From Apium graveolens (lineage: Eukaryota > Streptophyta > Magnoliopsida > Apiales > Apiaceae): a stretch of DNA of 64,000 nucleotides. Under the pieces are notes generated by a model. It saw only the letters and a list, made by a program, of their open reading frames with translations. It did not search any database and was not told the origin of the DNA. This document shows, one piece after another, positions 15,854 to 48,720 of the stretch; positions within the stretch are counted from its first letter, which is position 1, and each line of letters begins with the position of its first letter. Made by a program: the position numbers and the translations under genes. Where the stretch lies: assembly GCF_009905375.1 (NCBI RefSeq), contig NC_133649.1, positions 239,986,198 through 240,050,197 of the forward strand. The letters run 5' to 3'.

Positions 15854-15989
15854 TTTGTCCCCCACCTTTTGGGAAACAGTGACTAGGTTTCGCAGAAGTT
15901 AAGTTCATTCGTTCCCTTGCAGGGTATCGTTTTGCGCAAAGTGTGGAGCGACGTATACATTTACAACGATTTATTTTAATCCCTATTAT

Positions 15990-16250
15990 TTAGGAATTAA
16001 CTTAATTTCCAGGAATTTTTTCCTTAATTCTGGGATTTTTCCTTTATTTTCAAGAATTTTTCCCTTAATTCTGGGAATTTTCCTTAATTTTCAGGAATTT
16101 TTCCCTTAATTATGGGATTTTTCCTTTAATTCTGGAATTTTTCCCTTAATTCTGGAATTTTTCCTTAATTTTCAGGAATTTTTTCCTTAATTCTGGGATT
16201 TTTCCTTAATTTTTAGGAATTTTTCCTTAATTTCTGAAAATATTTTTATT
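15990..16250. repeat. About 20-bp tandem repeat in the Tat 3' noncoding region
   Basis: About twelve diverged copies of a unit close to CCTTAATTCTGGAATTTTTC run head to tail. Most units contain TTCnnGAA or TTCnnGGA, so the array is also a run of half heat-shock elements. Tandem repeats in the 3' noncoding region are a known trait of Tat-lineage elements and can seed satellites. Confidence 0.85.
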
Positions 16251-16315
16251 TTCAGAAAATACTTTAAGGAATTTTCTGGATTTTCCTTCCCACTTTTTCT
16301 TTTTTCTTCTCTCTT

Positions 16316-16899: not shown

Positions 16900-17245
16900 G
16901 CCATCCCTTAATTGGGCCTGTTTCCTCGGTATTTATTTCTGGGCCAACCTTTCCTTTTTGGGCCTGTTTTCAGTATAATTGGGTTTCTATTAACTGGGCC
17001 CTTTTTCTGGGCTTTGTATATTTCTAAGCCCAACAAGATTCAATTTCATTATTTGGGCCTTCCCTCCTTCCTTCCTTTTAAAAATTTGGGGTTTGGGCCC
17101 TGAACTGGGCTTGCTGCTTTCTTCAGGGCTTCCCTTTTGTTTTAGGACCAAAAAAATTTGGGTTTATGAACTTTCAGTCATGGACCTTTACAGGGCTTTT
17201 CATATCCACAGGCTCATTTGGGTTGGGCCTTAATTCCTAAGCCCA
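16900..17245. promoter_or_regulatory. Cluster of TGGGCC/TGGGCT (site II-like) motifs
   Basis: About ten copies of TGGGCC, TGGGCT or their complements occur here (for example near 16913, 16940, 16958, 16995, 17010, 17026, 17055, 17094, 17106, 17223 and 17239), with two more at 17378-17395. In plants, GGCCCA elements bound by TCP-type factors are common in promoters of growth-related genes. The cluster lies upstream of the TATA box of the Tat antisense gene. Function is inferred from the motif only. Confidence 0.5.
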
Positions 17246-17246: not shown

Positions 17247-17264
17247 TTCCAGAATTTTCCAGAA
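17247..17264. promoter_or_regulatory. Heat-shock element 1 (four perfect units)
   Basis: TTCCAGAATTTTCCAGAA fits TTCnnGAAnnTTCnnGAA with no mismatch. Plant heat-shock factors bind as trimers to at least three such units. Confidence 0.75.
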
Positions 17265-17277
17265 CTCCTGGGGTTCT

Positions 17278-17300
17278 TTCTGGATTTTTCCAGAATTTTC
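17278..17300. promoter_or_regulatory. Heat-shock element 2 (five units, one mismatch)
   Basis: The units are TTC, GAT, TTC, GAA, TTC, each separated by two bases. Only the second unit departs from the consensus (GAT for GAA). A further TTCnnGAA pair lies at 17319-17326. Confidence 0.75.
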
Positions 17301-17349
17301 AAAAAAATTATTTTCTTTTTCTGGAATTTATTTAAATTCTTCCAAAGTT

Positions 17350-17367
17350 TTCTGGAACTTTCCAGAA
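17350..17367. promoter_or_regulatory. Heat-shock element 3 (four perfect units)
   Basis: TTCTGGAACTTTCCAGAA again fits TTCnnGAAnnTTCnnGAA perfectly. With gypsy-C removed, it ends about 60 bases upstream of the TATA box of the antisense gene. Confidence 0.75.
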
Positions 17368-17395
17368 CTCTCTATTTTTTGGGCTCAAATGGGCT

Positions 17396-17400
17396 TTTTG
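17396..17400. repeat. Gypsy-C target-site duplication, left copy (TTTTG)
   Basis: TTTTG precedes the gypsy-C LTR and is repeated at 52145-52149 after the other LTR. Confidence 0.9.
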
Positions 17401-20400
17401 TGTGGCGCCCTCCAAACCCGGGTCAGAAGTTTGGGGTCCACAACACATGCACAATATAAACCTGTATAAGAAATGTTATTTGCAATGACCCTGTTTCACA
17501 TAACTACGGATCACAACAGGTTAAAGTATGTAAACAAGCCACAATCTTGACCTTTATTACAACGTACCAAATCCCAACTAATTTAACTTACAATTGATAA
17601 TAGAATCATTCTTACAATCTGACTATCTCTATACCGCATGAAGCTTCTGCTAGCTCGATTCAACTCAACTGGAACCTTAGCCCGCACTTTGGACTGAAGA
17701 ACTTCACTAGCATCCACATTCTTTTCAACTGTAAAATATATAAAAGAATCGCAAGGGTGAGCTAACTAGCTTAGCAAGTCATAATAGTGATAACTGAGGT
17801 TAAGCAATGATCAAATGAGATGATTTCAAGGAATCAAGTTTCTTTTTAACTAATCATTAGAATTGGATATTCATTTTAAGTTTTAAAAACCAAGGTTAGG
17901 CTGCTGATCAGTCACGCACTAACCCCGAGCAAGCACACAACACTGCTCTCATTACTGGATCCAAGGCACACATTGGCCTAACTTGACCATTGGTATGGTC
18001 TGACCACGAATCTGGTCCACATATATAAAAACTATCCAATCCTAAAGCAGTTCAATATGACAACAATATGATTCAATAAAACAAAATCATAATCAATGAT
18101 TGTTAAACATTTGCATAAAAACGTAAGGAAACTCATGGATATCTCAAGGGTATATCAGGGTATGTATAAGAAACGGTTTTCAACGGTTTTCAGTTTGTAC
18201 AAGGGTCAGGTATAAGACCAGTAATGATTTTTCAGGATATGGTTCTTTGATGTTATTAAGAATGATTGGAGTATAAAAGTTTCTGTGTTTTCAAATCATT
18301 CTCTTTCAGTGTTTGGTGTTTGGTAATTATATCTTTGAAGAGTAGTATTATATTTGTATGGTTTGGTGTCTGAGGATCAACAAAGGACGGTTTGCAAAGA
18401 ATAAGGCTTACATCTCAAGATCAAGAAAGAATCAGGGTTTAAGGGTAAATAGTTTGAAGCATATGCATTATAAAACAGGAGTTATGTTTAATAATAGTAA
18501 CATGTTATGAAACAGTTCGAAAACATTGGTAATATATCTTGAAGAAAAGTTCAGAAATACTTGCCTTACAAGGCTTTACAACTATTACTGATCAACTCTG
18601 AGCCGACTCTGCTGCTCAGGTTCTAACGTTCAACCACTAGATCCCATTGGATTTAACCTCGACACTCAAGTCTTTCTGTTGAAACTCTACTGAGCTCGTC
18701 GACTGACCACTATGTTATCTTTAGTCCATCGTCCACTTTCAGGTTCCCGACTATAACCTACAGGGTCGAAATACCCTACGTTAGACGTCTAGGTATGCTT
18801 GACATATCCTCGATACTAATTCTTATTCAACAATATTCAAACCCGACTCGTAATTATTCATATTAGAATAACACAGTCAACAATTAGGGTTCACATTCTC
18901 GAAATCGATTCAGTGTTCGTTTTTAGAAAACACGTATACTCGTCATTTTTCAAAATTAGGGTTACTGTGTTTTGGAAAAAATATACAGCACAACATACAA
19001 TCAGATTTCTGTAGAAAACATACATATATGTATCTACTTATACTCGCTCGACGTTCCGATAATCCTCGGTTACGCTCCCGTATTTACGTAGTTCAGTTTC
19101 CGAAAATCGGACAGCGTCTCCTTTGTTTATCGGACTACCCGTCGAAACATAAATCGACGTCTTAACTCCCAATAACAACGCAACAATCACAAATCCAAAC
19201 AGCTCAAATTCATAACCCAATCATAATTAAATACGCAATCCAAGTTTCAATACAATCTTTAAATACCGGTTGAATATTTCTTGTTTTGAAAATAATTTCA
19301 CGAACTAAATTAATACTTTAAAATTTTAGGACACAGAATAAACATCACAGTCCACCGTCAGCTCACGAATAACTCAAATAACCACAGAAATTTCATTCGA
19401 ATTTAATAAAATAATTCACTCATATTTTCATCACAGTCCCAGAATTCGAATAACTCAAATAACCACAGAAATTTCATTCGAATTTAATAAAATAATTCAC
19501 TCAGATTTTCATCACAAATTAACGGCAATTCGGCAATTTCAAAACCCATGGCCACGCGCACACGCGCAGCTGGAGAAGAGAAAAACCAGGGCGGCAACAG
19601 AACACAGACAACACCACAATCACACAACTGGACAGCACACATATGTATACGTATGTGTATATGTATATACACGATCGAACGGAATAGAATAAAAGCCACA
19701 GCCGAGAACAGCGACGGCGGCCGGAGTTCAAGGGGCTGGAAAATCGAAGACAGCCGGAATCTTACCAGAAGAAACAGGGAAGGAAACGGAAAAGAAAAGG
19801 GAGACACGAGAGTCTGTGAGGGAGAGTAAGAAAAACAGAGAGAGATTTCCCCAGCAATCGAGAGTAAGAAAGAAATTGAGAGATGAAAAATGAAAATGGG
19901 GTGGAAGAGAAGAACTGTGATCTTCTTTCTTCTTTTTTCTCGCTTATTTAGAAGCTGCCACGTATCTGTGGCCTTACAAAAACAAAACATGTGCCCCATA
20001 TTTCCAATTGCAAGGCCAGACTTCACCCGAAATTTATAATTTAGCGAAATAAAACGCACCAAAAATAAAACTCAACAAATCTCCAAAATAATCTTAAAAC
20101 GCTATAAATATCCCGAAGTTCACAAAATATAAATTTCATAATTTAAAAATAATTTCTGAAACACAGTATATACCCGTATTTCACATTTAACGAACCGAGG
20201 TGTACTTAAAACAGATTCAGAAAATCATGAAAATAGTCTTAAAATATTACAAATATCCCGAAGTTAATAAAAAGATGAATTTTGGAATTTTAAAACGATT
20301 TTTAAAATGCACTTTATATCCTCTTTTATCAATGAAGCGAAATAACGAGCGCGTGAAATTAACTCCGAAAATTTCCAAAATAATTTTAAAATTCTCGGAA

Positions 20401-20819
20401 TATTCCAAACTTAAATAAATATGAATTTAATAATTTTTGAAGAATTCTAGAATTAAATATCGATTTTACAAATAAAAGCATTCATAAAATCATTTAAAGA
20501 TAATTATTTAATAAAATATAGATTTCTCAATTTTATAAAATCCTAAAAATAATTATTGTAATTTTAAAGTCATAAAAACAATTTTAGAGACATTTCAAAT
20601 ATTTATGCAAATAAATTTGCACTAAATTCATTTTTTTAAAAATGCAAACAATTCAGTACACTCAATAATTAACTACCCGAACCACCCTGTACACCATAAA
20701 TCACACATAAATAATAATAAAACAACATCGAGCTGACAAAAAACTATACACATACTTTATTTATTTAACACTTCCACAATTACATATTTAAATAATTCAA
20801 AAATACATGGGTCGTTATA
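17401..20819 (-). repeat. Gypsy-C 3' LTR (3,419 bp)
   Basis: It starts TGTGGCGCCC on the plus strand and ends at GTCGTTATA, so the element-sense ends are TATAACG...GCCACA rather than the usual TG...CA. A TATA-like CTAAATAAGC on the minus strand lies near 19944-19953. The LTR carries a roughly 66-base duplicated stretch (19371-19436) that replaces different sequence found in the other LTR. Confidence 0.92.
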
Positions 20820-20838
20820 TCCTTTCCCCCTTAAAAAG
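20820..20838 (-). other. Gypsy-C polypurine tract
   Basis: On the minus strand it reads CTTTTTAAGGGGGAAAGGA, directly before the LTR. Confidence 0.85.
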
Positions 20839-23210
20839 ATTATGTCCTCAGAATCTGGTCTAATTACACAAGTGAGGATATTTGTCAAGCATATCTGACT
20901 CTAGTTTCCAAGTAGACTCTTCTACTCGAGGAATTCGAACGTATTTACTATAGATATACACTCATTTCCAATGACTCGCCTTTAACGATCAAGATTTTGG
21001 ATTGATCACTCTATGCGAAACAAACTTGGACAAGAGCCCCATTGACTCCTGATCAATCACTTAATTTAAATCAGATACTTATCGTTTTTATCTTTAACAG
21101 ACTAAACACACTATATGTACACACTGTTGCGACGGTAACATCAACTCATGAACAACCTTATCTATATTTATCAATACCTCGAATTGTTCACCAACTTTGG
21201 GACTTAACCTGTCTCTTCTACTTAGACTTATCTAGTCTTTTTCAAGATGAAACTTGTACTAACACTACTGGTCCTATTTCTATACTCATATTCTCTCTCG
21301 ATATAATTTCGCCTTCTTTCTTTGTCTACTCTGAGCTGCTTCAATCAATATTACTTCGCTCTTGGTGTGCTGAATTAATTTAGAATTTGACAACTTTCTT
21401 TCTCTCACTTTATCTCAATAAAAATGAGGATCTACACTTGTGTTCACATGAATCTTGATAAAGTAGCATTCCAAAGTTGACATCGATGATAACTATTCAT
21501 TCCCGTGTTTCCTTAAAACTCAACTTTTCAACATATCTTACATTTCTTAAATCACCTCTGTACTTTGACTCTCCGTTTTAGGATGATAGGCGGTGCTCAT
21601 TTTCAACTTGGTTTCCAAATATTTAAACATTTGTTACTCCTTTTTATTAGTTAAGGCTGAAAAGTAATCTCATATATTCACGTATTATTACCTTTAAGTA
21701 TTTGAACTTCAAATTTCACTCTTTCCGATTCGTCTACTAACTCCTCGGTGGTCTTAATTACATTCAATCCTTTCTGTCAACATAAGGCATCTGTTACCAT
21801 ACAGCTTTGCTTAGGTAGTTGTTGATGGGTTAATTCCGAATCTTTTATTAACCTTAGTCAAAATTTCATTTTGAAGACTCAACGTATAGTTGCTTTCCTT
21901 CTGATCTTTGGAGAAAAATCCTTGGGCATTCCACGCAGACTTTCTTATTTCTTGAGTAGCTGAGGATGTTATCAATAGATACAGTTTGCTTATCCAAGTA
22001 ATCCTTATACACCATGTCCCTTAATTCCTTATAGACAATTGATATACTTGTTATTTCACATAATATCGCCAGGGTTTGCAATGCTCTTAATTCACTTTAA
22101 TCGTAATTTCTGATATGTTCTCAAGTCAGATCTTAAGTTAATTCTCGAGACATAACACACTTCTTGGATTAGGTTTCATAGGTAATGAATCTTTATAGGG
22201 GTCACTTATTCTTATTCGTTGTTTTATTGAACTCCTGCTAACCAGTACATAATCTCATAATTTTATTCCTTTTCTCTAACAACACCACTGTTACATTTTA
22301 CGATTCGCTTCTTGTAAAACCACTCCTTGGTCTGCCTTGTTCACTAGGCCTCCGATACTTCGCCTTAATTCTTTGACATATCCAACACTTCCCAATCTAT
22401 TTTGAAATTTCCTTCTTGTACCTGGTTATCACTATTTATTTCATTTTATTATTATTATTATTTTTTTCCTTTAAATTTCCATGTATCTTAGCATTTCTTT
22501 AGTGAATTAAATACTTTATATTGTGAATTCCCTGTGGGATCTCATTTCTTAATTCTTCTACTTGTAGCATCCAAGTGCTGGAAGAAAATCGGGGAATATC
22601 GTGATCGTTCTTCTGGGCGGGTAAATTTTCTCTTACTAACTGCTAACATCGTGATCCATTATCTTCTTTTAACATCTCCTTATCTTTTCTTAACAACTCT
22701 GACTAAAAGGTCATACTACCCATCCTTGTTTTCTTTGGATTATATATCTGATTTCCAACTCCAATTTCTTAAATTCTATAGAAATTTCTTCCGGTATAGT
22801 TTCTATGTTCGTTATTGCTTTCCTCTATCTTTGCTTTTACTCGTGAATACATACTTCAACCTCTTATGGCCCGTATAGATCTTACACCTTTCTCCATACA
22901 TATCATGTTTCCCAAATCTTTCAAAACGAATATTATTACTGTTAATCCCAAATTATGGGTAGGATACTTCTGCTCATAAGGTTTCGGTTGTCTGGATGCA
23001 TATACAATAACTTTATTGTGCTGCATCAACACACATCATATTCCCTAATGAGAAGCATCACTATAAACTACCAAACCTCCTTGATACTTTTAAATTGATA
23101 AAACAGGTACTGAAACCATTCTTTCATTTAACTCCGCAAAACTTTCCCTTCACCCTTCTCCATTTCACAAAACTTCTTGCTTTTCCTGGTTAACTTCGTC
23201 CAAGATATTG
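20839..23210 (-). pseudogene. Gypsy-C pol, decayed: RNase H, integrase, C-terminal tail
   Basis: Read on the minus strand, fragments of a chromovirus polyprotein can be recognised through many stops and frameshifts. RNase H shows YSDASH and CVLMQHNKVIVYASRQ at about 22925-23082. The integrase motif MSTAYHPKTESQS lies at about 21563-21605. A tail resembling that of gypsy-B (STWRLESDMLDKYPHL) lies at about 20868-20940. The domain order and wording match gypsy-B, so both are Ty3/gypsy chromoviruses. The rest of the stretch holds no intact ORF. Confidence 0.8.
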
Positions 23211-23215
23211 CAACT
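23211..23215. repeat. Copia-D target-site duplication, left copy (CAACT)
   Basis: CAACT directly precedes the copia-D LTR and is repeated at 45099-45103. Confidence 0.93.
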
Positions 23216-24878
23216 TGATGGATTTTAATCGCAACGGAGGCATGGTAAAATACTTTTACACATATAAAATCCAAAAAAAAGCATATAAATCGTGATTAAA
23301 ACATATGAATCGATTACTAACCTTTAATAGCGATCCAAAAGCAACGATCGGAGATCCTTAGCAGCTGCTCCTCAAACGTGAAGCACTCCACCGGTATCCA
23401 CCAAGAAAACGACGTTAAGGAGGAGGAGGAGGTGGAGAGAATTAGGTTTTTCTAAAATTTTTGGGTTCTGGGTTAGAATAAAAATAGGGTTTATAATAGT
23501 ATATTTATAGGCAAAATTTTCAGCTGAAATTTTCCCATAAAATATTATTATTATTAACCCATTTATTATTCTCATTAATAATTAAAATACCTTTTAATTA
23601 TTAATCCTTTTTCTAAACACTTTAGAAATAATTCTCTCTCTTGATTTAATTTCCAAAAATTAAATTCTTAATTAATAATATTAAGAACTTTTCTTAATTA
23701 ATTTATAATCAATTAAATCTCATTTAATCAATTATTAAATTTGCCAATTAATTATTTATTTCATAAATAAATAATTATTAGCCATTATTAATTAATTCCT
23801 CCACCATTAAATCATTCTCTTTTTATGGTGTGACCCTGTAGGTTCAATATTAAGCAGGTAGTAGAAATAAATAATAATAAAACTATTTTATCATTATTTA
23901 TATAAATTCTCTAATTTATTAAATATGATTAATTAATTAATCATATTTATTCTACATCGTGAGGGATACTTCTCAGCATATCGCGACTATCCGGATAATA
24001 CGAATTCACTGCTTAGAATACCAAGAACCTATTCAGTGAATAGTTACCGTACAATAAACTCCTTCTACCCTACAATGTCCTGATTAAATACAAGGCATGT
24101 AACTTGTGTCAAGCCTATCTAATTTAATCATTTGCTTTCCCATTTACTATGCTTAGTTCTATGCAAATTAGAAACTCCTTTCTAATTTCATTCACTCTGG
24201 CCAGAGATTCCTGAACTAGCATAAGTGGATCAGCCTTGAACATTCGCTTCCTTCACTGGAAGGGGTAGATCCTTTATTGATCATACACTATCTTCGTGTA
24301 CAAATTCCTATACCCAGTAGAGCCCTAATAATTGTCCCTGGAGACTAAGAACTAAACCAAAGCATAGTTCAGTGTACACAAGATGACTATGATGACCTCA
24401 AGTCTAAGGATACTTGTACAACTATCACTATGTGAACAACTGCTGACACGTGAGTGAACTCCATCAGTTGTTCAGCTGTGCGAGTCATGTTCAGTGAACT
24501 TATTCTATAATAAGCACCTACATACTAGCTATAGTGTCACCACACAAATGTCTATGAGAACAGACATCCTTCATAATGAAGCAAGCATAGTATGTACCGA
24601 TCTTTGCGGATTATTAATTACCAGTTAGTAATCCTATGATCAGGAACTATTTAAGTTTAGAGTTATCATCTTTTAGGTCTCACTATTATGATCTCATCAT
24701 AATCCATAAAAAGCTTTACTCTAAACTATGGTATATCTTATTTAAACACTTAAATAGATAGAGCCCGTAATAAAAACAAAACAAGTCTTTTATTAATATC
24801 AATGAAATCAAAACAGATTACATAAAAAATTATTCCTAAATCCTAATACATGATTGGACTTAGGACATATTCCTTTCA
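23216..24878 (-). repeat. Copia-D 3' LTR (1,663 bp)
   Basis: In element sense it starts TGAAAGGAATATGTCC and ends CCATCA. It matches 43434-45098 and, less closely, 60147-61799. A minus-strand TATA box, CTATAAATA, lies at about 23502-23510. Confidence 0.95.
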
Positions 24879-25166
24879 ATCTCCCACTTGTACTAAAGCC
24901 AATCACTCTGGTATCTAATACCCATCTTGTCTTTATGACGATCAAAGTGACTTTCATAAAGTAGCTTTGTGAGTGGGTCTGCTATGTTGTTATGTGTGTC
25001 AACTCTATTTCAATACAACACAAGAAATGTTATCGCGCTCCCACTAACCCTTTTGTAGACACATGGTTCATCTACGTTTTTCATAAAACCAAACTCTTTG
25101 ATTGTCTCATCAAAACGGATGTTCCATCTACGAGAAGCTTGCTTTAAACCACATATGGTTCGCAGC
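24879..25166 (-). pseudogene. Copia-D polypurine tract and 3' end of damaged pol
   Basis: On the minus strand a short frame passes from the middle of reverse transcriptase (CVYKRVSGSAITFLVLY) through a TGA straight into the last residues of RNase H (THNNIADPLTK). The catalytic YVDD and nearly all RNase H are absent. AGTGGGAGATT just before the LTR is the polypurine tract. Gypsy-B separates this piece from the rest at 25166. Confidence 0.82.
25162..25166. repeat. Gypsy-B target-site duplication, left copy (GCAGC)
   Basis: GCAGC precedes the gypsy-B LTR and recurs at 38995-38999. The matching uninterrupted site in D' (about 62082-62095, GGTTCGCAATAGCT) confirms that the pieces join here. Confidence 0.95.
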
Positions 25167-27360
25167 TGTAATAACCCCCAAAATTTTCAAATTTTTTTGT
25201 AACCCTTGTGAATAGTGTTTTTGCTGAATGAGAAAACTTTTCATGCCACACTATGTAGGGGTTCTATTATGGATATTCTGAGATTTTATTAGTACTCTAT
25301 ATGATATATGAGTGTATGTAAAGATCGTCAGAATCCAATTCCGAACACTTTGGTTTTTCCCGGAAATACACTAGATACGGAGAGAATTGAGTATAAGGTA
25401 ACAGGATAAAAAGGATTTAAATTAAAGGATTATAATAGAGGATCATAAAAAGGAATATAATGTATTGAGAAAGGTTAAGGGAACCTAAGTAATAAGATCC
25501 CGGGTATGATCCTTCAAACGATAAACGAAAACGAAAGTTAAGCGAACCGTATAACAGATCAGCGGTCATTAGGCAAACAATTAGGAAGTTAATCAAAGGG
25601 ATTAGAGAGGATGATGTCACCCAACCAATGAGAAGAGGACAAGGAGGGAAAGATGACATCACAACATGACATAGGCATGACATGGGAAGGAAGGAGATGT
25701 GGTGGATTTTTAACCACACAAAATCAAGGTTAAATTGGTAATTAACCAAAAACAAAACAAAACCAAATCAACCAAGCCAAATAATTCATTCTTCATCAAA
25801 ATCAAAAAGAAACCAAGGCATTATTCTTCATTTGCTCTCGGCTTTTTGACATTTTAAAGGCAAGAAATTTCAAAAATTCAAGATCCAAGCTTCTTAAATT
25901 GGTGAGTTAATTCCCTAATCATCCTTATGCATAGTTATGGCTATATCATGAGTTTAAGCCGTTAATTCTTTCTCAATCTTCTTAAATAAATCAATGAAGA
26001 AGACAATGAATAGTGTTTTCAAGTTTTTAACTTGAAATTTTTCTTGTTTTCCTTTAAGATCCAAGCATTCCTAAGACTTCTCAAAGCTTCTTAAGGCTTC
26101 CTAGCTACTCCCACCACTTCAAGGAAGGTATATCATCTCCAAACCCTAGATTCCTATGTATTATAAGATGATGTTGATTATTATGGTGATATTGTAGCTT
26201 AATGCTTGTGGTTTAGAGTTTGGGTTGAAGTGGTATTGAAATGGAATGGTAAATCTTGTTATTTTGGTTAAAAGAACTTAAGTATAGTTAAAGTCAAGCT
26301 TAGGCATAAGTATAAATGTTAAAATTGAATTGATTGGGGCTGTTATGATGTGATAAGGATGGATGTTGGTTGTATGATTGATTTGAGGTTAAATTGTGAT
26401 GGTTTTTGAATGATTTAAAATTGGGAAATCGCGTAAACATAGCCGTCGTAACGTCCGATTTTCTTTAGACTGTTTTTGTGCATAACATTAGGACCCGAGA
26501 ACCCCCTTCTAGATTTTGACCATTGCCATGGTTAGATAGTTCGTGTTACGAGCTTCGTTTTGATATGTAGTTCGTTCGATTCCGATGCACGGTTTAGGAG
26601 AAACGACCGTTTCAAGTAACGGCGTTTCGCGAACGAAACTTTTCCCCTCGCCTTACTTTGAAACATAGGTTAAAGACCAAAAAGGGTTAATTAATGTATG
26701 AAACAATTATGGTAAGAGTGTTAGGCAGTTGGTAGGACACTCGCGAAGGAATCGCCTTAAAACTCGTAAAGGTTAAATTATTAAAAATGGTGGAGCCGAG
26801 GGTACTTGAGTGACTTAAGAGAATCAATAAGCGCAAAACAAGCGTTAGAGTCTAAGTTAGTTAAAGTATAGATTTACAAGTGACTTTGGTTTAATTCCAA
26901 CTTACTTGTTGTTTATAGGTTACCAAACTCGTCCCGAGCCTTTTATCACCCCAAGTCGCTCAGGCAAGTTTTCTACCCGTTATAACTGTTGTTGTGATGT
27001 ATATGTGTATATGCATGATCTTGCGTTAAATGCATATTTGTTATAGCAAACTCTTGTGATATATTGTAGCATGTTATATGGTACATATGCATGCCTGTTT
27101 CGTATTCTTGCCATATATATCTGTTGGTTCAGTTGATAATACCTATGCTAGAGGATAGCGGTAATTTGCATATACCCTTAGTATAGGGACCCAAAAGGTG
27201 AAAATATTTTCTAAAACCGGGAGTCGAGGATCCCGAGTAGATTTTGTATATATGTATATATATATATTTATATATATATATGGTTATAGTTTTCAAAACT
27301 ATTAATCGAATAAGGGTTATTCGATAACTTTATATTATTTATTGAATATTATTTCGAATA

Positions 27361-27530
27361 TTATTCGAGGGCTTATGACTCCTTTATATTATTATTGAAT
27401 ATTGCTTGGATATTCATTTGAGGATGTATGACTCCTTTATTTTATGAATATTATTTATAGTATTCATTCGAGGTATTATGACTCCGCTTATTACTTAATA
27501 ATATTCTTTATTGTATTAAAGAATAAGGTG
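27361..27530 (+). repeat. About 50-bp tandem repeat in gypsy-B U3
   Basis: Three diverged units share ATTCGAGG or ATTTGAGG followed by TATGACTCC (TATGACT near 27374, 27427 and 27477). The same array is in the 3' LTR (about 37320-37490). Confidence 0.75.
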
Positions 27531-27978
27531 TCGATAATCAAACTTATTTTTGATTATTCAAATAAAGATATTACTTTCGTATAAGTATATCTTTGATTAT
27601 TTACTATTCATTTCAAGTATAAGTTTTCCAACTTCTACCTCAATTATTCTTATGGGAATATTATTTAAATAATAATATTCAGATATTTCTTTCATATCGG
27701 GACTGGTTTATTTTAATAAATCAGTATTACTCCAAACATTCTTAAAAATGTTTTCGAGTCTTCAAAATGATTTTTAAAAGTTAGAGCGGATCCCAAAACT
27801 CATTTTTATATTCAAGATCTTCCATTTTAAGGGGACTTGAACACTCGCTCAAAAATCTAAGGGATCCGGCTCTGTGGTGTATTTTATATTCGCAACAAGG
27901 TTGCAGTTTTGGTAAATAAATTGATTACTTACCCAACGTTCGGGAAGTAAGTCCATCTCTTGAGTCGGCATAAGCAAC

Positions 27979-28066
27979 ATGGGCTCAGTGGGCGTCCATG
28001 ATAGTGTAAGTGGCTCAGTGGGAGTCCATCAAATGCATAAGTGGCTGAGTGGCAGTCCAGCATAAG
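27979..28066 (+). repeat. Triple 30-bp repeat in gypsy-B U3
   Basis: GGCTCAGTGGGCGTCCA, GGCTCAGTGGGAGTCCA and GGCTGAGTGGCAGTCCA start about 30 bases apart (27982, 28012, 28043). They lie roughly 500 bases upstream of the TATA box. The 3' LTR has the same repeat (about 37938-38023). Confidence 0.85.
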
Positions 28067-28642
28067 GTCCTATTGTGACCAGGGTGATGACCAGTGGGGA
28101 ATTCGTCCATCTACTAGTAGAAAAGGTTACTTATTGGTATCTTTGCCTGATCAGCGAGATATCTGGTTTATGCCAAAATTCTTTTCCTTTCCAAAATTCA
28201 TTGGATGTTGCAAACTCTGTCCATACATTTCATGACAGAGGTTTTCAGGAAATTGTCTAAAGAAGATGTATATGTGGAGATATATATCGGAACTTAATGA
28301 AGTATATCATAACTTCATTTCCTTTAATAATATTTCAAAGATTTAATCTATTCAAATCTTGTCTTGTAGTCTCATCTATGTGATGAACTGTTGAAATCTC
28401 ATTATACTTTGAACAGTGGTAGTTCAAGTAGCTTTATAAATGATATAAGTGTAGTGAAGTATTTGGTAACTTCATCCTTTGTTTTTACTTATATCTAGTA
28501 AGTAATTATCTTACACATGATAAAAGATTCTAGTAAGTATCCATTTAGATACTTATATTATTGTTATCACTATATATTATCTTGCGAGCTGTAAGGCTCA
28601 CTCTTGCTTTATTTCTTCATCACACAACAACAGTTAGGAAAG

Positions 28643-29962
28643 ATGGCCAGACTCCAGCAGACCCAGCGCAAGCGCGTGGGAAGCGTCCCGCGTCTTCCCG
28701 ATGATGTTGTAGCTGCTATAGCTGCAGAGGTAGATCTATTGGTAGATCAGGCATTCTACTTTTGAGAATCAAATTATGTATAATTATAACTTGTGGCAGA
28801 TAATGGCAATTAACTGTAAATTTATCAAGTAATCATTTTGGGTTGTAATAACTTTTAATTGTGGATTTAAGGACTTGTACTTATTTCAATTTCATCTCTG
28901 AGACTATAACGGGTTGTGGTGTGTGTTAGTGTGGGGTCACAGCATAGGGTTAATTTTATTAATTAAGTGAAGTGGTATTGTGGAAAGAAAGACCGTGACG
29001 ACCCGGATCCCCGACCCCGGATCTGGGGGTGTTAGAGAAATGGTATCAGAGCTAAGCGTTATAAACCTCAGAGATGATGCGACGATATAATAATAAACTC
29101 ACAAAGATAATAAGAACTCTTGCCAAGTTCATGGTCGGACTACTTAAAGTAGTGCCGACAGTTAAAACCCTTACGGAAACCCTTATAAGTATCATGATAG
29201 TAACTTAGCTTGTTTAATGTGTAGGCGCTTGAGATAGAGGACCCTGAGATGTTCGAGCGTGAGCATGATGAGGCACTGCTAAATGTTGAGGATCAGGAGG
29301 AACCTGAGATGGAGGAGGATGAGGAGGACCCCTCAGAGGAGTCAGAGACGGAGGTCATTGCTATTTCAGATGAGGAGGACCCCTCAGAGGAGTCAGAGAC
29401 AGAGTTTATTGTTATTCCAGATGAGGAGGACCCGGATGAGGTCCCAGTAGCAGAGGAGCGTGTCAGACCTATGGTAGTGTATGCTGGTACCCCTTTACCC
29501 ACACTTCCGGTGGTCAGAGCCCCTACCCCTCCACCACTATCTTGGATCCCCTATGATGACAGCTCAGAGACCCATACTTCCGAGCCTAGGCAGACCGAGG
29601 AGGCACCCCCAGCGGCTCCGGATTCACCACCTCTTGACCCTGCCCACAGGCAGTCTTCGTTGGCTCATGGATATGTTCAGGATGTACTGAGGACCCGAGT
29701 GGCTGTTGCCGAGGCCCGACTGGATGAGGCCAGGAGGGAGTTGGATGCGGAGAGGGCGGGTAGGCGTACCCGAGCTTATGAGACTAGGGCTTCTATACCC
29801 CGATCCTTGAGGAGGGAGCTTACGGGGATAGAGCTCACATCCCGAGCGAGACTCAGATCTCTCCAGGGGGACAGGCATGGTAGGATCTCCAGGCGGCAGG
29901 CCGACTATATCTTCCGTCGTGCGATGGAAAGGGTATGGGAGCTGACCCGCTCCGGTGTGTGA
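28643..29962 (+). CDS. Gypsy-B leader gene ('ORF0') with a predicted intron, upstream of gag
   Basis: Exon 1 (28643-28729) starts at an ATG about 65 bases after the LTR TATA box and ends at CAGAG/GTAGAT. The predicted intron (28730-29224, 495 bp) covers the LTR end and primer site and ends TGTGTAG. Exon 2 (29225-29962) is an intact 246-codon frame; its own first ATG is 29249 (237 residues). The splice is phase 0 and gives about 274 residues. The N-terminus is basic. Next comes an acidic region with a 17-residue tandem repeat (51-bp units from 29318), then a Pro-rich centre and an Arg/Glu-rich coiled coil at the C-terminus. I recognise no known domain. Unspliced, exon 1 reads as a 40-residue ORF to 28765. 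It is the only undamaged full-length gene in the element. Splicing is predicted, not shown. Confidence 0.6.
29041..29058 (+). other. Gypsy-B primer-binding site
   Basis: TGGTATCAGAGCTAAGCG starts four bases after the LTR. TGGTATCAGAGC is complementary to the 3' end of plant initiator methionine tRNA. Confidence 0.92.
29318..29440 (+). repeat. 51-bp in-frame tandem repeat in ORF0
   Basis: Units start at 29318, 29369 and (partial) 29420, each opening GATGAGGAGGAC. They encode two and a bit copies of an acidic 17-residue block (DEEDPSEESETE...). Confidence 0.9.
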
Positions 29963-30376
29963 TTCAGGATTGGCGATGGAATAGTCTAGTTGTCTAGTTA
30001 GCCGAGGCCTTAGTAAGAGCCAATTTTCCGGGATAGTTGACTTGTATATAGCATCCCTTTTTCTGACTAGACAGATAGACTCTTGTGTATCACTTTTGGG
30101 ACAGATGACTGTAGCACTGTTGTACTTTTGACCAGATCAAACTATGTATTTCTCGTATTATGTATATATTTGTTTCCTTTCGGTTCAGTTCCTTAGTGAC
30201 GAGATCACTGTTTTTATCATTATTATTACTGCACTTCGTATTAGAACTGTCATAAAATAATAGAATTGCGATATACGTTCTCCCCATTATAGAGCTGTGC
30301 AAGGCACAATGTCGTGTATGATTGTGACCTAACGTTGAATTTTTCCCAATAATTTTTTTTTTTTATTATCAGTATC
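29963..30376 (+). other. Gypsy-B spacer between ORF0 and gag, with a strong 3' splice site
   Basis: There is no ORF in these 414 bases. The last part is a long T tract followed by ATTATCAG (acceptor at 30371-30372), only four bases before the gag ATG. That position would suit a spliced gag mRNA. Confidence 0.6.
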
Positions 30377-32197
30377 ATGCCGCCAAGAAAGATTGGAACT
30401 AGGGCGAACCCTGGATCTGAGGACCAGGGAAGCCATAATCAGGACAACAGAAACCAGGAACACAGTGAAGAGGAAGACGAGGATTATGTGGAACAGGATG
30501 ACTCCCTGTATGAAGAGGAAGAGGAAACATATGATGTTGAGGGATTTGAGATAGAGGCTGAAGAAGGAGAAACTGAGGTTGAGCAACCAGTACCAAACCC
30601 AGGCATGGATCCCGTGGGCCAGTTTATGCAACTCCTAAGGCAGAACTTGGAACGTCAACCCAACCCACCCCCTCAAGGAAATAACAATGTTGTGGCAAAC
30701 TCTTTCAGGGCTTTTAAGTCCATTAAGCCCCCTGAGTTCCACGGATCAGCCGACCCAGTTGAGGCAAGGGCATGGTTAAAGGAAATGGAGAAATCCTTTG
30801 AGATTCTGAGTATCGATGAGGCGCAGAAGACTGTATTTGCTACCTACCTTCTGAAAGGAGAGGCCAACTACTGGTGGGAGGCCAAGAAAAACATGGAGAC
30901 AGATGCTATTATAACCTGGGAGAGATTCAGTCAGTTGTTTCTGGGAAAGTATTTCCCGAGGTTTATGGAAAACCAGATGGAGCTCAAGTTCTTGGAGCTA
31001 AAGCAGAATAATTTATCGGTAGCAGAGTACGAAGCGAAATTTACTGAGTTATCAAGGTTTGTGCCGGAGTTTGTGAGCACCGAGGAAAAGAAAGCTAGGA
31101 GGTTTCAGCAGGGACTGAAACCGTGGATTCAGAATAGGGTGGCAATCCTTGAGCTTACGGACTATGCCACTCTGGTGCAAAAGGCAACGATTGTAGAAGT
31201 CGGAAGTGAACAGATGCAGAAGGAAAGAGAGAAGAAATGAATAAAGAGGAAAAGTATGAGCATGGGTGGAGGTTCCGCAGGAAGGAGCTTCCCAACTAGA
31301 TTTAATCGAGGAGCAGTGTCCCTACCAGGAAGGAACACTGGGTTTAAGCGGCCAATGAGTGTGAGTGTGAGCAAGGGCGGCCAGAAGTTAAGAATGTCCT
31401 ATTCCAACCAGTCTCGACCCCCATTGCCAGCCTGTAACATATGTGGAAGGAATCACGCTGGGGAGTGTAAAGGAAAGCCAGTAACCTGCTTTAAGTGCGG
31501 TCGGGAAGGTCACTATTCAACTAAGTGCCCATCATCAACCCCTGCCGTCATTCCAACCACCACTTGTCATCAGTGTGGACGCCCGGGTCATTGGAAGAAG
31601 GAATGCCCGATGAACAAACCAGCGGCTTCGGGAGCAAGCAGGGCTGCTTCTAATAAGCCACCTACTGCAAGGACTTTCAACATGACAGTCCAGGATGCTA
31701 TGAAAGATTCAGATGTGATAGCAGGTACCCTTTCTCTAAATTCAGTCAGTGCAAACGTTTTATTTGATTTGGGAGCAACTAAATCTTTTATATCAAAGGA
31801 CTTTGCGCGTAAGTTAAGACTTAAGGCTGAACCCTTGATAGAACCCTTACAAGTAGAAATAGCCAATCATGAAATTATTTCCGTTAACCAGATTCACACC
31901 GCCTGTGAGATAGGCATAGGGGAGCAATCTTTTAGTGTTGATCTGATCCCTTTTAAATTAGGGGAGTTTGATGTAATTTTGGGAATGGACTGGCTATCTA
32001 GCAATGATGCTCAGATAGACTGTAAAGGGAAGAAAGTTAAGTTGAATATTCCAGGGAAGAAAGAAGTCATATTTAGAGGAAAAAGGCAGACGCAGAAATT
32101 TTTGACCATGGCCCAGGCCAAAAGGATGCTACAAAAAGGAAGCGAAGCTTACCTAGCATATGTGGTGGACGCGCAGAAGGAGGTGCCCAACTTATAA
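30377..32197 (+). pseudogene. Gypsy-B gag and protease (one internal nonsense codon)
   Basis: ATG at 30377. A TGA at 31238-31240 interrupts the frame, which continues in register to TAA at 32195-32197. After an acidic N-terminus the retrotransposon Gag domain begins near residue 110 (FKSIKPPEFHGSADP) and includes ANYWWEAKK. Three zinc-knuckle motifs follow: CNICGRNHAGEC (a shortened form), CFKCGREGHYSTKC and CHQCGRPGHWKKEC. An aspartic protease starts near 31745 with LFDLGATKSFIS. A Ser or Thr is expected between Asp and Gly of the active site, and here it is Leu, so the protease is probably dead. Gag would build the particle and protease would cut the polyprotein. Confidence 0.92.
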
Positions 32198-35088
32198 GAT
32201 GTTCCAGTAGTCAACGAATTTGAAGATGTATTCCCACAAGACCTTCCGGGACTACCACCCGATAGAGTGATTGAATTTGCTATTGAGTTGGCCCCAGGGA
32301 CGGCGCCAGTTTCAAAAGCACCTTACCGGTTAGCCCCGTTAGAAATGAAGGAATTAGCTATCCAATTGCAGGAACTCTTGGATAAGGGTATGATAAGACC
32401 CAGTGTGTCTCCGTGGGGAGCACCAGTTTTATTTGTTAAGAAGAAAGATGGGAGCATGAGGCTGTGCATCGACTATCGAGAGTTGAACAAGCTAACCATA
32501 AAGAACAGGTACCCATTACCTAGAATAGACGATCTGTTCGACCAGCTAAAGGATGCTGTTTATTTTTCCAAGATTGACCTGAGAACTGGATATCACCAAC
32601 TAAAGATTAAACCCGAAGATATTTCCAAGACAGCGTTCCGTACCAGGTATGGGCATTATGAGTTCTTGGTAATGTCCTTTGGATTAACCAACGCCCCAGC
32701 GGCTTTCATGGATTTAATGAATAGAGTATTTAAGAAGTACTTGGACAAGTGTGTGATAGTTTTTATCGATGATATTTTGATCTACTCAAGGACTGAGGCA
32801 GAACATGCAGAGCATTTGAGGATAGCTCTAGGAATACTCAGAGAGGAGCAGTTGTATGCCAAATTCTCGAAGTGTGAATTCTGGCGGAATGAAGTACAGT
32901 TTTTAGGACATGTGATCAATAAAGAAGGAGTATTGGTCGAACCCCTCCAAGATAGAGGCGGTCTCAAATTGGGAAAGGCCAACCACACCCACAGAGGTAA
33001 GGAGTTTCATAGGATTGGCCGGCTACTATCGTAGATTTGTACAGGACTTTGTGAAGATCGCAGCCCCTTTGACACGACTTACTCGTAAGACAGAGAAGTT
33101 TGAATGGACGGAGAAATGCGAGAACAGTTTTCAGGAATTAAAGAAAAGGTTGATAACGGCTCCGGTGTTGGCATTGCCGGACGGAAAAAGGAGATTTTGT
33201 GATATATAGTGACGCGTCGCACAAAGGACTAGGGTGTGTGCTTATGCAGCACGGTAAAGTGATTGCGTATGCGTCGAGACAACTGAAGGAATACGAGGTT
33301 AGATATCCTACTCATGACCTTGAGCTCGCGGCAATAGTATTTGCCTTAAAAATTTGGAGGCACTACTTGTATGGAGAGAAGTGCGAGATTTTCACAGACC
33401 ATAAAAGCCTCAAGTACATATTTACGCAGAAAGAGCTCAACATGCGCCAGAGGAGATGGTTAGAACTAATCAAGGACTATGATTGTGAGATTCTCTATCA
33501 TCCAGGAAAAGCCAATGTGGTGGCTGATGCTCTTAGTAGAAAGGAAAGATTCAAAATGATAACGACTTCGGAAGAATTGATAAGGGATTTTGAGAGAATG
33601 GAAATAGAAGTAAAGGTAACCGGAACCGGAACTGAAAAGCTTTTTGAGATCTCAATGCAGCCAGAGTTATTGGAAAAGATCAGATTGTGCCAAGAGAAAA
33701 TAATGAATGAAGGCAGAGAGTCAATGACTGGAGAGGAGATCCATACCGAGAAAGATGATAAAGGGATAATGAGGTACTCCTACCGGATTTGGGTTCCAAA
33801 TGTCCAAGAACTTAAAGATGAGATTTTGGATGAAAGCCATAGTTCAAGGTATTCCATTCACCCGGGAAGTACCAAGATGTATAGGGATTTGAAGGAATAT
33901 TACTGGTGGCCCAACATGAAGAGGGACGTAGCAGAATGGATAAACAAATGTTTGAATTGTAAAAGGGTAAAGGCAGAGCACCAGAGACCCAGTGGACTCT
34001 TACGACCCCTGGAGATTCCCGAATGGAAATGGGAACAGATAGCGATGGATTTTGTTGTAGGCTTGCCAAGGACGAAAGCCAATCACGACGCCATTTGGGT
34101 AATTATAGACCGACTGACAAAGTCAGCTTATTTCATTCCTATCAATGAGAGATACACAGTCGATAAACTGGTGGACATTTACCTTAAGGAAATAGTGACG
34201 CGACATGGAGTCCCAGCATCCATTGTCTCAGACCGAGACCCCAGGTTCAACTCCAGATTTTGGAGGAGCTTTCAGGAATGTGCGGGGACCAAGTTAAATA
34301 TGAGTACCGCGTACCATCCCCAGACGGATGGGCAAAGTGAAAGGACCATCCAGACACTAGAGGATATGTTGAGAGTCTGTGCAATAGACTTTAAAGGGAG
34401 TTGGGATGATCACTTGCCGTTGATCGAGTTTTCTTATAACAATAGCTTTCATGCTAGCATTGGAATGCCGCCTTATGAGGCCCTGTACGGAAGAAGGTGT
34501 CGATCTCCCTTATACTGGGATGAAGTAGGAGAGCGGAAGATGCTCGGACCCGAAGTGGTCCAAAGGACCAAAGACATAGTGGATCTTATCAGAGGACGGC
34601 TGGTAGCAGCCCAAGACAGACAGAAGAAATATGCAGACCTAGCCCGAAAGGACAAGGAATATGAAGTCGAGGACTTAGTACTGCTAAAGGTATCCCCTTG
34701 GAAGGGATTAATGAGGTTCGGAAGGAAAGGAAAACTAAGCCCAAGATACATTGTACCTTTTGAGATATTAAGACGGATTGGAAAGTTAGCTTACGAGCTA
34801 GCCTTACCCCCTAACTTGCAACAAGTTCATAATGTGTTCCATGTGTCAATGCTAAGGAAGTATCATCGGGATGCCAGACACATAGTGGAGTACGAGCAGG
34901 TGGATATGCAGCCAGATCTAACTTACGTGGAGAAGCCAGTAAGGATTATAGATAAGAAGGAGCAGGTGCTTCGGAACAAAGTGATCAAGCTAGTCAGAGT
35001 ACTATGGCAGAATCATAATGTGGAAGAATCAACTTGGGAACTAGAGAGCACAATGCTAGAAAAGTACCCCCATTTATTTTCTGTTTGA
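32198..35088 (+). pseudogene. Gypsy-B pol: reverse transcriptase, RNase H, integrase, chromodomain (two frameshifts)
   Basis: The frame continues from gag with TAA at 32195-32197 and runs through the reverse transcriptase ([16 protein letters not shown] near 32439, catalytic FIDD near 32764). A frameshift follows near 32943 (C-terminal RT, 33015-33209), and a second at an A run near 33184-33189. From 33199 to TGA at 35086-35088 it is intact for about 629 residues. That part holds RNase H ([14 protein letters not shown]), the integrase zinc region (HPGSTKMY ... CLNCKR) and the core ([21 protein letters not shown]). It ends in a chromodomain-like region near the C-terminus ([14 protein letters not shown] ... 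EESTWELE). Chromodomains steer chromovirus integration toward particular chromatin. Confidence 0.94.
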
Positions 35089-35121
35089 TTCCGGGGCGGA
35101 ATCCTTTTAAGGAGGGGAGAC
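35089..35121 (+). other. Gypsy-B polypurine tract
   Basis: TAAGGAGGGGAGAC (about 35108-35121) directly precedes the 3' LTR. Confidence 0.88.
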
Positions 35122-38100: not shown

Positions 38101-38994
38101 TGCCTGATCAGCGAGATATCTGGTTTATGCCAAAATTCTTTTCCTTTCCAAAATTCATTGGATGTTGCAAACTCTGTCCATACATTTCATGACAGAGGTT
38201 TTCAGGAAATTGTCTAAAGAAAAATGTATATGTGGAGATATATATCGGAACTTAATGAAGTATATCATAACTTCATTTCCTTTAATAATATTTCAAAGAT
38301 TTAATCTATTCAAATCTTGTCTTGTAGTCTCATCTATGTGATGAACTGTTGAAAGCTCATTATACTTTGAACAGTGGTAGTTCAAGTAGCTTTATAAATG
38401 ATATAAGTGTAGTGAAGTATTTGGTAACTTCATCCTTTGTTTTTACTTATATCTAGTAAGTAATTATCTTACACATGATAAAAGATTCTAGTAAGTATCC
38501 ATTTAGATACTTATATTATTGTTATCACTATATATTATCTTGCGAGCTGTAAGGCTCACTCTTGCTTTATTTCTTCATCACACAACAACAGTTAGGAAAG
38601 ATGGCCAGACTCCAGCAGACCCAGCGCAAGCGCGTGGGAAGCGTCCCGCGTCTTCCCGATGATGTTGTAGCTGCTATAGCTGCAGAGGTAGATCTATTGG
38701 TAGATCAGGCATTCTACTTTTGAGAATCAAATTATGTATAATTATAACTTGTGGCAGATAATGGCAATTAACTGTAAATTTATCAAGTAATCATTTTGGG
38801 TTGTAATAACTTTTCATTGTGGATTTAAGGACTTGTACTTATTTCAATTTCATCTCTGAGACTATAACGGGTTGTGGTGTGTGTTAGTGTGGGGTCACAG
38901 CATAGGGTTATTTTTATTAATTAAGTGAAGTGGTATTGTGGAAAGAAAGACCGTGACGACCCGGATCCCCGACCCCGGATCTGGGGGTGTTACA
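35122..38994 (+). repeat. Gypsy-B 3' LTR (3,873 bp)
   Basis: It begins TGTAATAACT and ends GTTACA. It is nearly identical to 25167-29036, including both U3 repeats and the 40-codon ORF starting near 38600. Confidence 0.96.
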
Positions 38995-38999
38995 GCAGC
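38995..38999. repeat. Gypsy-B target-site duplication, right copy (GCAGC)
   Basis: It matches 25162-25166. Confidence 0.95.
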
Positions 39000-39343
39000 A
39001 GCTTACACATTAGGTTTTCATTTCTCTTGGAAAGAAAACCATCTGGCTATTTGCCAGATCTCATAGTCGTAGTAAGCAGCAATCGCAAGCAAAATTCGAA
39101 CTGATTTTAACAGGTCTACAGGTAAAAGGTTTCATCAAAGTCAATCCATTGCCTTTGTTTGAATCCTTTTCCCAAAAGCCTGGCCTTAAAGGTCTCCACC
39201 TGGTCATCTGCTCTAATCATTCTTTTGTATCCCGTATACATAGATTTCATTCCGGATTTCATGGCACTATGCCATTTCTCTGAGTCAACACTACTCATAG
39301 CCTCATTATAGGTCACAGGGTCGTCATCATCAATGATCGACAA
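39000..39343 (-). pseudogene. Copia-D reverse transcriptase, N-terminal part with internal deletion
   Basis: On the minus strand the start of copia reverse transcriptase is readable (DDPVTYNEAMSS, KARLLGKGFKQ, then DETFYL). It continues with LLKSVRILLAIAAYYDYEIWQ read through a frameshift. The segment that should hold the first catalytic aspartate is gone; the sequence jumps to a region near SFQEK. D' has the same jump. Gypsy-B cuts the gene at 39000. Confidence 0.82.
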
Positions 39344-39373
39344 CTTATTGTCATTCTCAATGACAAGGCCATA

Positions 39374-41525: not shown

Positions 41526-41715
41526 AATGTATATTGTAAATCTGTAAATGATAAACACATAACAACACTTAGCAAATATTCGATTTCATTTTAAAACACT
41601 ATATGAATCGGGTCTTTATTCATAAGTGGCTCCCACTAGTTTATCTAATTTATTCAACCCCCTACATGAAAAATTAAGCATTCATAATGCTAGTGGGAAT
41701 AGGGATCCTACATTC

Positions 41716-41867: not shown

Positions 41868-41889
41868 GTCAAGTCTAACCCAACATTCC

Positions 41890-48718: not shown

Positions 48719-48720
48719 CC

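What the first reader, a model, noticed from the sequence alone, without database searches (positions are those of the whole stretch)
17247..17367. Heat-shock-element promoter on the Tat antisense gene, split by a 34.7-kb insertion
Three clusters at 17247-17264, 17278-17300 and 17350-17367 fit alternating TTCnnGAA units: four perfect, five with one mismatch, four perfect. The gypsy-C TSD shows that 17400 and 52150 were once joined. Rejoining them puts the clusters about 60-170 bases upstream of a TATA box (52175-52183) and an intron-containing antisense gene. This is the layout of a plant heat-shock promoter. Heat-shock elements in a retrotransposon promoter are known from the copia element ONSEN; I know of none driving an antisense gene of a Tat element.
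Basis: partly seen in the sequence, partly recalled or inferred. Interest (0 to 1): 0.88.

Follow-up and report, generated by a model that had tools for sequence, protein, structure and literature searches.

The report
Heat-shock promoter on retrotransposon antisense gene
A large family of plant jumping genes carries a backwards-facing gene whose own promoter looks like a plant heat-shock promoter and avoids the DNA letter pairs used for permanent silencing; the layout is kept in nearly all the related copies examined in this genome, but heat induction itself has not been tested.

Summary
Three heat-shock-element (HSE) clusters lie where stated, and the 34.7-kb gypsy-C insertion separates them from a TATA box and an antisense Transposase_28 (TRP28) gene of a Retand/Tat-like element. 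Of 39 other copies found by upstream DNA, 37 keep a perfect HSE of three or more units; in 27 of 35 it ends 57-59 bp before the TATA. Of 30 copies selected by protein instead, 29 keep one. Other spacings give almost none. While the element was active, HSE positions changed about as rarely as amino-acid-changing positions. Two features were not in the finding: many TGGGCC/T "site II" motifs, and almost no CpG (observed/expected 0.03-0.05, against 0.95 in 22 related TRP28 promoters without HSEs). No 3-unit HSE occurs on the LTR side of 30 copies, and none near the TATA in 46 other TRP28 loci. Best reading: an HSF-responsive, CpG-poor promoter private to the accessory gene. HSF binding and heat induction are inferred, not shown.

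The parts
17247..17264 (.). HSE cluster 1, four perfect alternating TTC/GAA units
   Evidence: kept in most of the 39 DNA-selected copies
17278..17300 (.). HSE cluster 2, five units with one mismatch (three perfect at 17288-17300)
17350..17367 (.). HSE cluster 3 (proximal), four perfect units; 58 bp from the TATA box in the empty site
   Evidence: gap 57-59 bp in 27 of 35 copies with both features
17224..17245 (.). site II-type hexamers TGGGCC (17224) and AGCCCA (17240) just before HSE cluster 1
   Evidence: flank columns slow-changing
17380..17395 (.). paired site II-type hexamers TGGGCT/TGGGCT between the proximal HSE and the TATA
   Evidence: first hexamer seen by eye in the proximal slices of all 30 protein-selected copies, the pair in the first ten
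16913..17111 (.). nine further TGGGCC/TGGGCT/AGCCCA hexamers (13 in 16900-17400, 1.5 expected)
17396..17400 (.). target-site duplication TTTTG, left copy
17401..52144 (+). gypsy-C and elements nested in it, splitting the promoter; LTRs 17401-20820 and 48721-52144
52145..52149 (.). target-site duplication TTTTG, right copy
52175..52182 (+). TATA box TATATAAG of the antisense gene
   Evidence: TATATA at this place in 36 of 39 DNA-selected copies and TATATA/TATAAA in 30 of 30 protein-selected ones
52364..54267 (+). antisense accessory gene: ATG 52364, TRP28 exon within 52573-53173, likely introns 53174-53255 and 53639-53737 (GT-AG by inspection, not tested), stop at 54265-54267; frame interrupted near 52590 in this copy
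   Evidence: codon-position test
16001..16258 (.). 41/81-bp tandem array rich in TTCTGGAATTTTTCC in the same spacer (mostly off the HSE register)
15859..15870 (-). putative polypurine tract of the Retand-like element (reverse complement); its 3' LTR lies to the left
55378..59976 (-). sense coding region of the element: gag 58783-59976, RT 57136-58311, RNase H/integrase 55378-56814

Best explanation
The three clusters are the HSF-binding part of a composite promoter that belongs to the antisense TRP28 accessory gene of an abundant Retand-like (Tat-lineage Ty3/gypsy) family. Its order is many site II (TGGGCY) motifs, one to three HSE arrays, two site II motifs, then TATATAA, usually 48-63 bp after the last HSE. 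Shown here: this architecture, its conservation, its confinement to one group of TRP28 genes, the absence of 3-unit HSEs on the LTR side, and a near-total lack of CpG in the promoter. Inferred: HSF trimers bind under heat and raise antisense TRP28 mRNA, site II motifs give basal expression in dividing cells, and CpG avoidance limits maintenance methylation so that the promoter can respond while the element is silenced. In the window copy itself the promoter has been cut from its gene by gypsy-C and is a relic.
For: Period-specific arrays: 82 perfect runs at 5-bp period in 39 copies, against 3 at period 4 and 0 at periods 3 and 6-10; 41 against 0 at seven other periods in 30 protein-selected copies, where randomised promoters give 0.2-0.9 of 30 on average. 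Steady distance to the TATA. HSE core plus spacer columns: 8 internal-branch changes in 58 columns, as low as codon positions 1+2 (72 in 451) and below codon position 3 (123 in 225; Fisher on internal/terminal counts p=0.001), while terminal-branch changes per column lie in 0.67-1.01 in every class. Turnover that keeps the array: around the last TTCnnGAA the third unit is upstream in 29, downstream in 18, on both sides in 1, absent in 7, and 2 have no TTCnnGAA, of 57 distinct promoters. 0 of 46 other TRP28 loci have an HSE near the TATA. CpG observed/expected 0.03 and 0.05 here against 0.95 in 22 HSE-less TRP28 promoters, with TpG+CpA not raised and CHG at expectation, 200 against 201. A heat response element and absence of CG sites are reported for the ONSEN LTR (PMC3907296, passages).
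Against: No RNA, HSF-binding or methylation data. Within the 185-bp block the HSE columns are not significantly slower than all other block columns (p=0.17; p=0.07 when site II flanks are removed), so the whole promoter block is constrained, not HSEs alone. The 39 copies were retrieved with the block itself, which favours conserved ones. Protein-selected copies often have only one 3-unit HSE. L025 and L029 of the first set and L096 of the second have none, and L104 and L118 have none within 45-70 bp of the TATA. Sister loci L078 (80% TRP28 identity) and L076 (73%) have no perfect run within 900 bp, and L082 does not avoid CpG. Copies are related, so they are not independent trials.
Confidence: 0.72

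Rival explanations
1. The clusters are by-products of the T-rich, repeat-prone 3' spacer: degenerate relatives of the 16001-16258 tandem array (TTCTGGAATTTTTCC) that fall into the HSE register by chance.
For: Similar wording in the neighbouring array; that array gives a 5-unit, one-mismatch HSE at 16075-16097 and a 4-unit one at 16161-16178, and in L076 a similar array contains TTCTAGAATTTTC twice. With the clusters in the training set, order-5 Markov models give five or more 3-unit arrays in 7.3% of runs.
Against: In-register arrays persist across copies at a steady distance from the TATA while other periods give almost none; slow change on internal branches; absent near the TATA in 46 other TRP28 loci. 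This may explain the origin, not the retention.
Confidence: 0.07
2. The HSEs are functional but not mainly for heat: an HSF acting in development (for example seed or pollen HSFs, recalled) together with TCP factors at site II motifs drives constitutive or germline expression of TRP28.
For: Dense site II motifs (13 against 1.5 expected). Grande gene23 antisense RNA is ubiquitous and relatively high, and Retand aORF expression weak and ubiquitous (PMC7264820). In protein-selected copies the HSE is often only a 3-unit array.
Against: Three or more contiguous perfect units close to a TATA is the classic heat-inducible layout (recalled); expression data are lacking either way.
Confidence: 0.3
3. 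The product that matters is antisense RNA, not protein: heat-driven antisense transcription makes double-stranded RNA that restrains the element.
For: Antisense layout; the dsRNA idea is discussed for aORFs in PMC7264820; HSF-linked antisense from Alu elements is reported in human cells (PMC3334603, abstract).
Against: TRP28 coding positions 1+2 are strongly constrained relative to position 3 on internal branches (p=1.5e-10), so the protein is selected. In the window no sense-strand (minus) ORF of 150 aa or more overlaps the gene, though broken pol sequence or a longer transcript could overlap.
Confidence: 0.12
4. The HSE block is an enhancer for the adjacent 3' LTR and for neighbouring host DNA rather than for TRP28.
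For: HSEs act in either orientation and at a distance (recalled).
Against: The LTR side of 30 copies (window included) has no 3-unit HSE; HSE-to-TATA(TRP28) distance is held while the spacer towards the LTR varies in length.
Confidence: 0.08

Closest known systems
Retand-lineage LTR retrotransposons with antisense TRP28 ORFs (Vicient 2025, PMC11963269)
   Same: Antisense PF04195 gene between pol and the 3' LTR and tandem arrays in the same spacer; the paper's table lists Apium graveolens clusters of similar dimensions (parts 1-2 of 5 read).
   Different: A term search of its main text gave 0 for 'heat', 'TATA' and 'intron', and 'promoter' only in a reference; so no promoter anatomy is given.
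Grande gene23 (maize) with its own promoter (Gomez-Orte 2013, as described in PMC7264820)
   Same: Accessory antisense gene transcribed from a promoter upstream of it.
   Different: Reported as ubiquitous; no HSE or CpG avoidance known to me. The primary paper was not read.
ONSEN/ATCOPIA78 (PMC3907296)
   Same: Heat response element (nTTCnnGAAn) in the promoter of a plant retrotransposon, and lack of CG sites in it (passages).
   Different: ONSEN is copia, the element is in the LTR and drives the genomic RNA, and CHG sites are absent too. Here it is gypsy, an internal antisense promoter, and CHG is at expectation.
HSF sites in antisense Alu repeats (PMC3334603)
   Same: HSF sites in a repeat linked to antisense transcription under heat (abstract).
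   Different: SINEs linked to antisense of host genes, not a conserved gene of the element.
HTLV-1 HBZ-type antisense accessory genes (named in PMC11963269)
   Same: Antisense accessory gene with a regulatory nuclear protein; analogy only.
   Different: Animal retroviruses; antisense promoter inside the 3' LTR (PMC7264820); no homology claimed.

Membership tests
Retand/Tat-lineage LTR retrotransposon with TRP28 gene | antisense PF04195 ORF between pol and 3' LTR | tested here: met
   PF04195 E=2e-9, 38 bits, above cut-off 26.2; opposite strand to gag/RT/RH-INT
Retand/Tat-lineage LTR retrotransposon with TRP28 gene | RT places in the Retand clade | not tested
   No RT tree was built; RT matches PF00078
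Retand/Tat-lineage LTR retrotransposon with TRP28 gene | long pol-3'LTR region with tandem arrays | tested here: met
   Antisense stop codon (54267) to putative PPT, gypsy-C not counted, is about 3.7 kb, a lower bound for pol-3'LTR; array at 16001-16258; published range 2.9-6.6 kb
Retand/Tat-lineage LTR retrotransposon with TRP28 gene | paired LTRs and 5-bp TSD of the element itself | not tested
   In the window the 5' end lies beyond a second copia insertion at 60155-64000; not pursued in the genome
HSF-target (heat-shock) promoter | three or more contiguous alternating TTC/GAA units at 5-bp period near a TATA box | tested here: met
HSF-target (heat-shock) promoter | HSF binding | not testable with these tools
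   needs DAP-seq/EMSA
HSF-target (heat-shock) promoter | heat-induced transcript from this promoter | not testable with these tools
   no expression data on hand
ONSEN-type heat-activated element | HSE in the LTR driving genomic RNA | tested here: not met
   0 three-unit HSEs in 18.4 kb on the LTR side of 30 copies, window included
ONSEN-type heat-activated element | promoter without CG sites | tested here: met
   o/e 0.03 and 0.05 in the 220 bp upstream of the TATA; 30 of 36 and 23 of 30 copies have none
ONSEN-type heat-activated element | promoter without CHG sites | tested here: not met
   200 CHG observed, 201 expected in 30 promoters

The most novel reading that the evidence does not exclude
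One plant retrotransposon family has uncoupled its two promoters. The LTR that makes the genome has no HSEs and ordinary CpG (o/e 0.5 in the window's putative LTR), while the antisense accessory gene has a CpG-free, heat-shock-responsive promoter. On a heat pulse the element would first make TRP28, a possible nuclear DNA-binding regulator, even where its LTR is methylated. TRP28 would thus work as a heat-triggered switch (activator, anti-silencer or brake) for the family. HSE plus CG-free promoter would then have evolved independently of ONSEN, in gypsy and in antisense.
Probability: 0.35. Interest if true: 0.88.

Novelty: new variant of a known kind. Interest (0 to 1): 0.77.

Why it matters
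The function of TRP28 antisense genes, found in 97% of the Retand clusters surveyed in PMC11963269 (abstract), is unknown. A conserved, HSE-bearing, CpG-poor promoter gives a direct handle: heat the plant and ask what TRP28 does. It also suggests that HSE plus CG-free promoter design has arisen more than once in plant retrotransposons. An abundant family of this kind would also scatter many HSE-bearing promoters through a 3.3-Gb genome.

Tried and rejected
Chance and local-repeat origin were tested with Markov nulls, period controls, shuffles and branch-wise change counts; retention is not explained by them. A Retand-wide HSE feature was rejected: 46 of the 50 PF04195 loci read lack HSEs near the TATA. 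HSE in the LTR was rejected. CpG loss by methylation decay was judged unlikely because TpG+CpA is not raised.

Mistakes corrected: one search scanned minus-strand loci on the wrong side and was redone with orientation. One search used a PPT pattern found only in the window and was redone from coordinates. Led nowhere: Pfam on the last and first exons; literature searches for heat plus Retand, gypsy, TRP28, site II or celery; the genome-wide HSE-TATA pattern count (not completed).

Full report
What is there. The window's genome is held as G000 (3.33 Gb, 4,849 contigs, eleven of them over 200 Mb among those seen). Size and number of long contigs fit celery, Apium graveolens, but that is recalled; no call names it. 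They lie in the 3' spacer of a Ty3/gypsy element on the minus strand (gag, RT, RNase H/integrase at 59976-55378), between its putative polypurine tract (15859-15870) and an antisense gene on the plus strand. The antisense gene carries Pfam PF04195, Transposase_28. Gypsy-C (17401-52144, TSD TTTTG) sits between the clusters and the TATA.

More than chance. In the window three of four perfect HSE runs of three or more units are these clusters, and other periods give none in the spacer. Markov models of order 1-5 trained on the spacer without the clusters give two 4-unit arrays in at most 0.7% of 3,000 runs. With the clusters in the training set the figure is up to 3.5%, and the observed five 3-unit arrays are reached in 7.3% of runs at order 5, so the in-window statistic alone is not overwhelming; the copies decide.

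Copies found by promoter DNA. A DNA search with 16900-17400 gave 42 matches at 40 places (40 candidates scored of 778 first-look hits). I read the 39 places other than the window (L002-L040). 37 of 39 have a perfect HSE of three or more units (the exceptions are L025, where the region is deleted, and L029); the longest run is 4 units in 29, 6 in 4, 3 in 4. There were 82 runs at the HSE period, 3 at period 4 and none at periods 3 and 6-10. In the 35 copies with both features the last run ends 57-59 bp before the TATA in 27, 53-62 in three more, 125 or 161 in five. L026-L028 carry a 10-bp in-register extension (six perfect units), and L039 has a differently spelled proximal HSE.

Copies found by protein. 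A search with the TRP28 exon scored 150 of 14,400 first-look candidates; all but the window itself are 91-95% identical. By hand count 56 rows share 463.0-463.1 bits with no stops inside, which suggests recent bursts. I read 30 promoters from that list: ten chosen by hand from the plateau of equal scores and twenty spread down the list. 29 of 30 have a perfect HSE, 27 of 30 within 45-70 bp of the TATA; 41 runs at the HSE period, none at seven others. Randomised promoters give 0.2-0.9 of 30 on average. L096 has none; L104 and L118 have none in the proximal place. These copies often have one 3-unit HSE rather than three clusters. Over both sets, 48 of 57 distinct promoters have a perfect run in the last 110 bp, spelled in 11 ways. 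Next to the last TTCnnGAA the third unit is upstream in 29, downstream in 18, on both sides in 1, absent in 7, and 2 have no TTCnnGAA.

Selection. On a tree of 37 copies plus the window (L025 and L031 dropped; L001 is the window), terminal-branch changes per column are similar in all classes (0.70-0.92 by region; 0.67-1.01 by codon position), as expected for decay after insertion. Internal-branch changes are 0.16 per column in HSE cores, 0.10 in HSE spacers, 0.10 in the TATA, 0.26 in the rest of the 17216-17395 block, 0.63 in 52150-52173, 0.63 in the 5' UTR, and 0.84 in 17160-17215. In the gene, codon positions 1+2 have 72 internal changes in 451 columns and position 3 has 123 in 225 (p=1.5e-10). 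HSE columns (8 in 58) against position 3: p=0.001. HSE against the rest of the block: p=0.17, or 0.07 without site II flanks. Site II flanks had 6 changes in 48 columns. So the block as a whole is held, with HSE and site II at its slowest end. The copies were retrieved with this block, which biases this test; the protein-selected set does not share that bias but was not put through it.

Which elements have it. Fifty PF04195 loci were read, the 51 best-scoring of 150 scored less one, from 14,002 first-look candidates; ranking by Pfam score is not a random sample. Three have an HSE-like array (three or more perfect units, up to one mismatch) within about 150 bp upstream of a TATA: L078 (80% TRP28 identity to the window), L081 and L082 (about 50%). 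L076 (73%) has eleven site II motifs and only degenerate HSEs near the gene. The other 46, all below 50% identity or without a match, have none near a TATA; five of them have an isolated 3-unit array more than 1 kb upstream of the TRP28 domain. By the stricter rule of a perfect run within 900 bp only L081 and L082 qualify. In the midpoint-rooted tree L081 falls outside the window group plus the HSE-less group, so HSEs were either ancestral and lost, or gained twice. The LTR side of 30 copies, window included (18.4 kb), has no 3-unit HSE.

CpG. The 220 bp upstream of the TATA have CpG o/e 0.03 in 36 window-type copies (30 with none; L001, L019, L025, L031 not used) and 0.05 in the 30 protein-selected copies (23 with none). 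The spacer 650-1100 bp upstream of the TATA has 0.97, the exon 0.48, and 22 promoters of HSE-less TRP28 families (those with a TATA at the expected place) 0.95. In the window the poor stretch reaches back through the site II region, 0.07 at 16900-17215. TpG+CpA is not raised (0.81-0.85), which points to avoidance rather than decay. CHG is at expectation. The stretch after the TATA is CpG-poor in both groups (0.25 and 0.01 against 0.19 in HSE-less families), so that part is not special. L081 (0.12) and L078 (0) are poor too; L082 (0.9) is not. ONSEN's LTR lacks CG and CHG sites, which its authors link to escape from maintenance methylation (PMC3907296, passages).

Mechanism. Shown: architecture, conservation, confinement to one group of TRP28 genes, CpG scarcity, coding constraint. 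Inferred: HSF trimers bind the array under heat, a TATA-directed antisense mRNA is made, spliced and translated into TRP28, and the CG-free promoter stays responsive when the element is silenced. What TRP28 does next is unknown; a DNA-binding regulatory role is proposed from residue prediction in PMC11963269 (parts 1-2 of 5 and passages read). In the window copy the promoter is detached and the gene's frame is interrupted near 52590, so this copy is a relic of a family whose better-preserved copies are common.

Literature. Antisense TRP28 genes and an own promoter for the related Grande gene23 are known (PMC11963269; PMC7264820, parts 1-2 of 3 read). Ten library searches were made. Their listings (titles and abstract starts; searches show only 15 of very many loose matches) name no paper on HSEs in a Tat/Retand or other antisense plant retrotransposon promoter. 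A review on retrotransposons and heat (PMC9780303) has no hit for Retand, HSE or HSF (term search only). Subscription papers, including Gomez-Orte 2013, were not available. That TGGGCY is a site II motif bound by TCP factors is recalled.

Noticed in passing
list; L091-L120: By hand count 56 rows match the window's TRP28 exon with 463.0-463.1 bits and no stop inside the match, in several open-frame lengths, which points to very recent bursts of this family.
   Followed up: partly
16260-17400: CpG observed/expected drops from 1.0 at 16260-16900 to 0.07 at 16900-17215 and 0 at 17216-17400; the same contrast holds across copies.
   Followed up: yes
16329-16800: Spacer between array and promoter is full of GTTCGACCAGGAATCCT-like repeats (17-bp unit); similar wording is seen in L076 and L082; function unknown.
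   Followed up: no
52364-52600: Exon 1 and the TRP28 frame of the window copy do not join in one frame near 52590, so this copy's gene is broken.
   Followed up: no
1-13332: Copia-type sequences with long duplicated blocks (1-695/9815-10509; 5053-7831/10518-13332) and large extra ORFs.
   Followed up: no
23216-45098 and 60155-64000: Two copies of another copia-like element, one split by a further gypsy element (LTRs 25166-29037/35121-38995, 99% identical); the second lies next to gag and cuts off the 5' end of the antisense gene's element.
   Followed up: no
15300-15858: Putative 3' LTR of the element with a minus-strand TATA near 15455-15470; no 3-unit HSE in it.
   Followed up: partly
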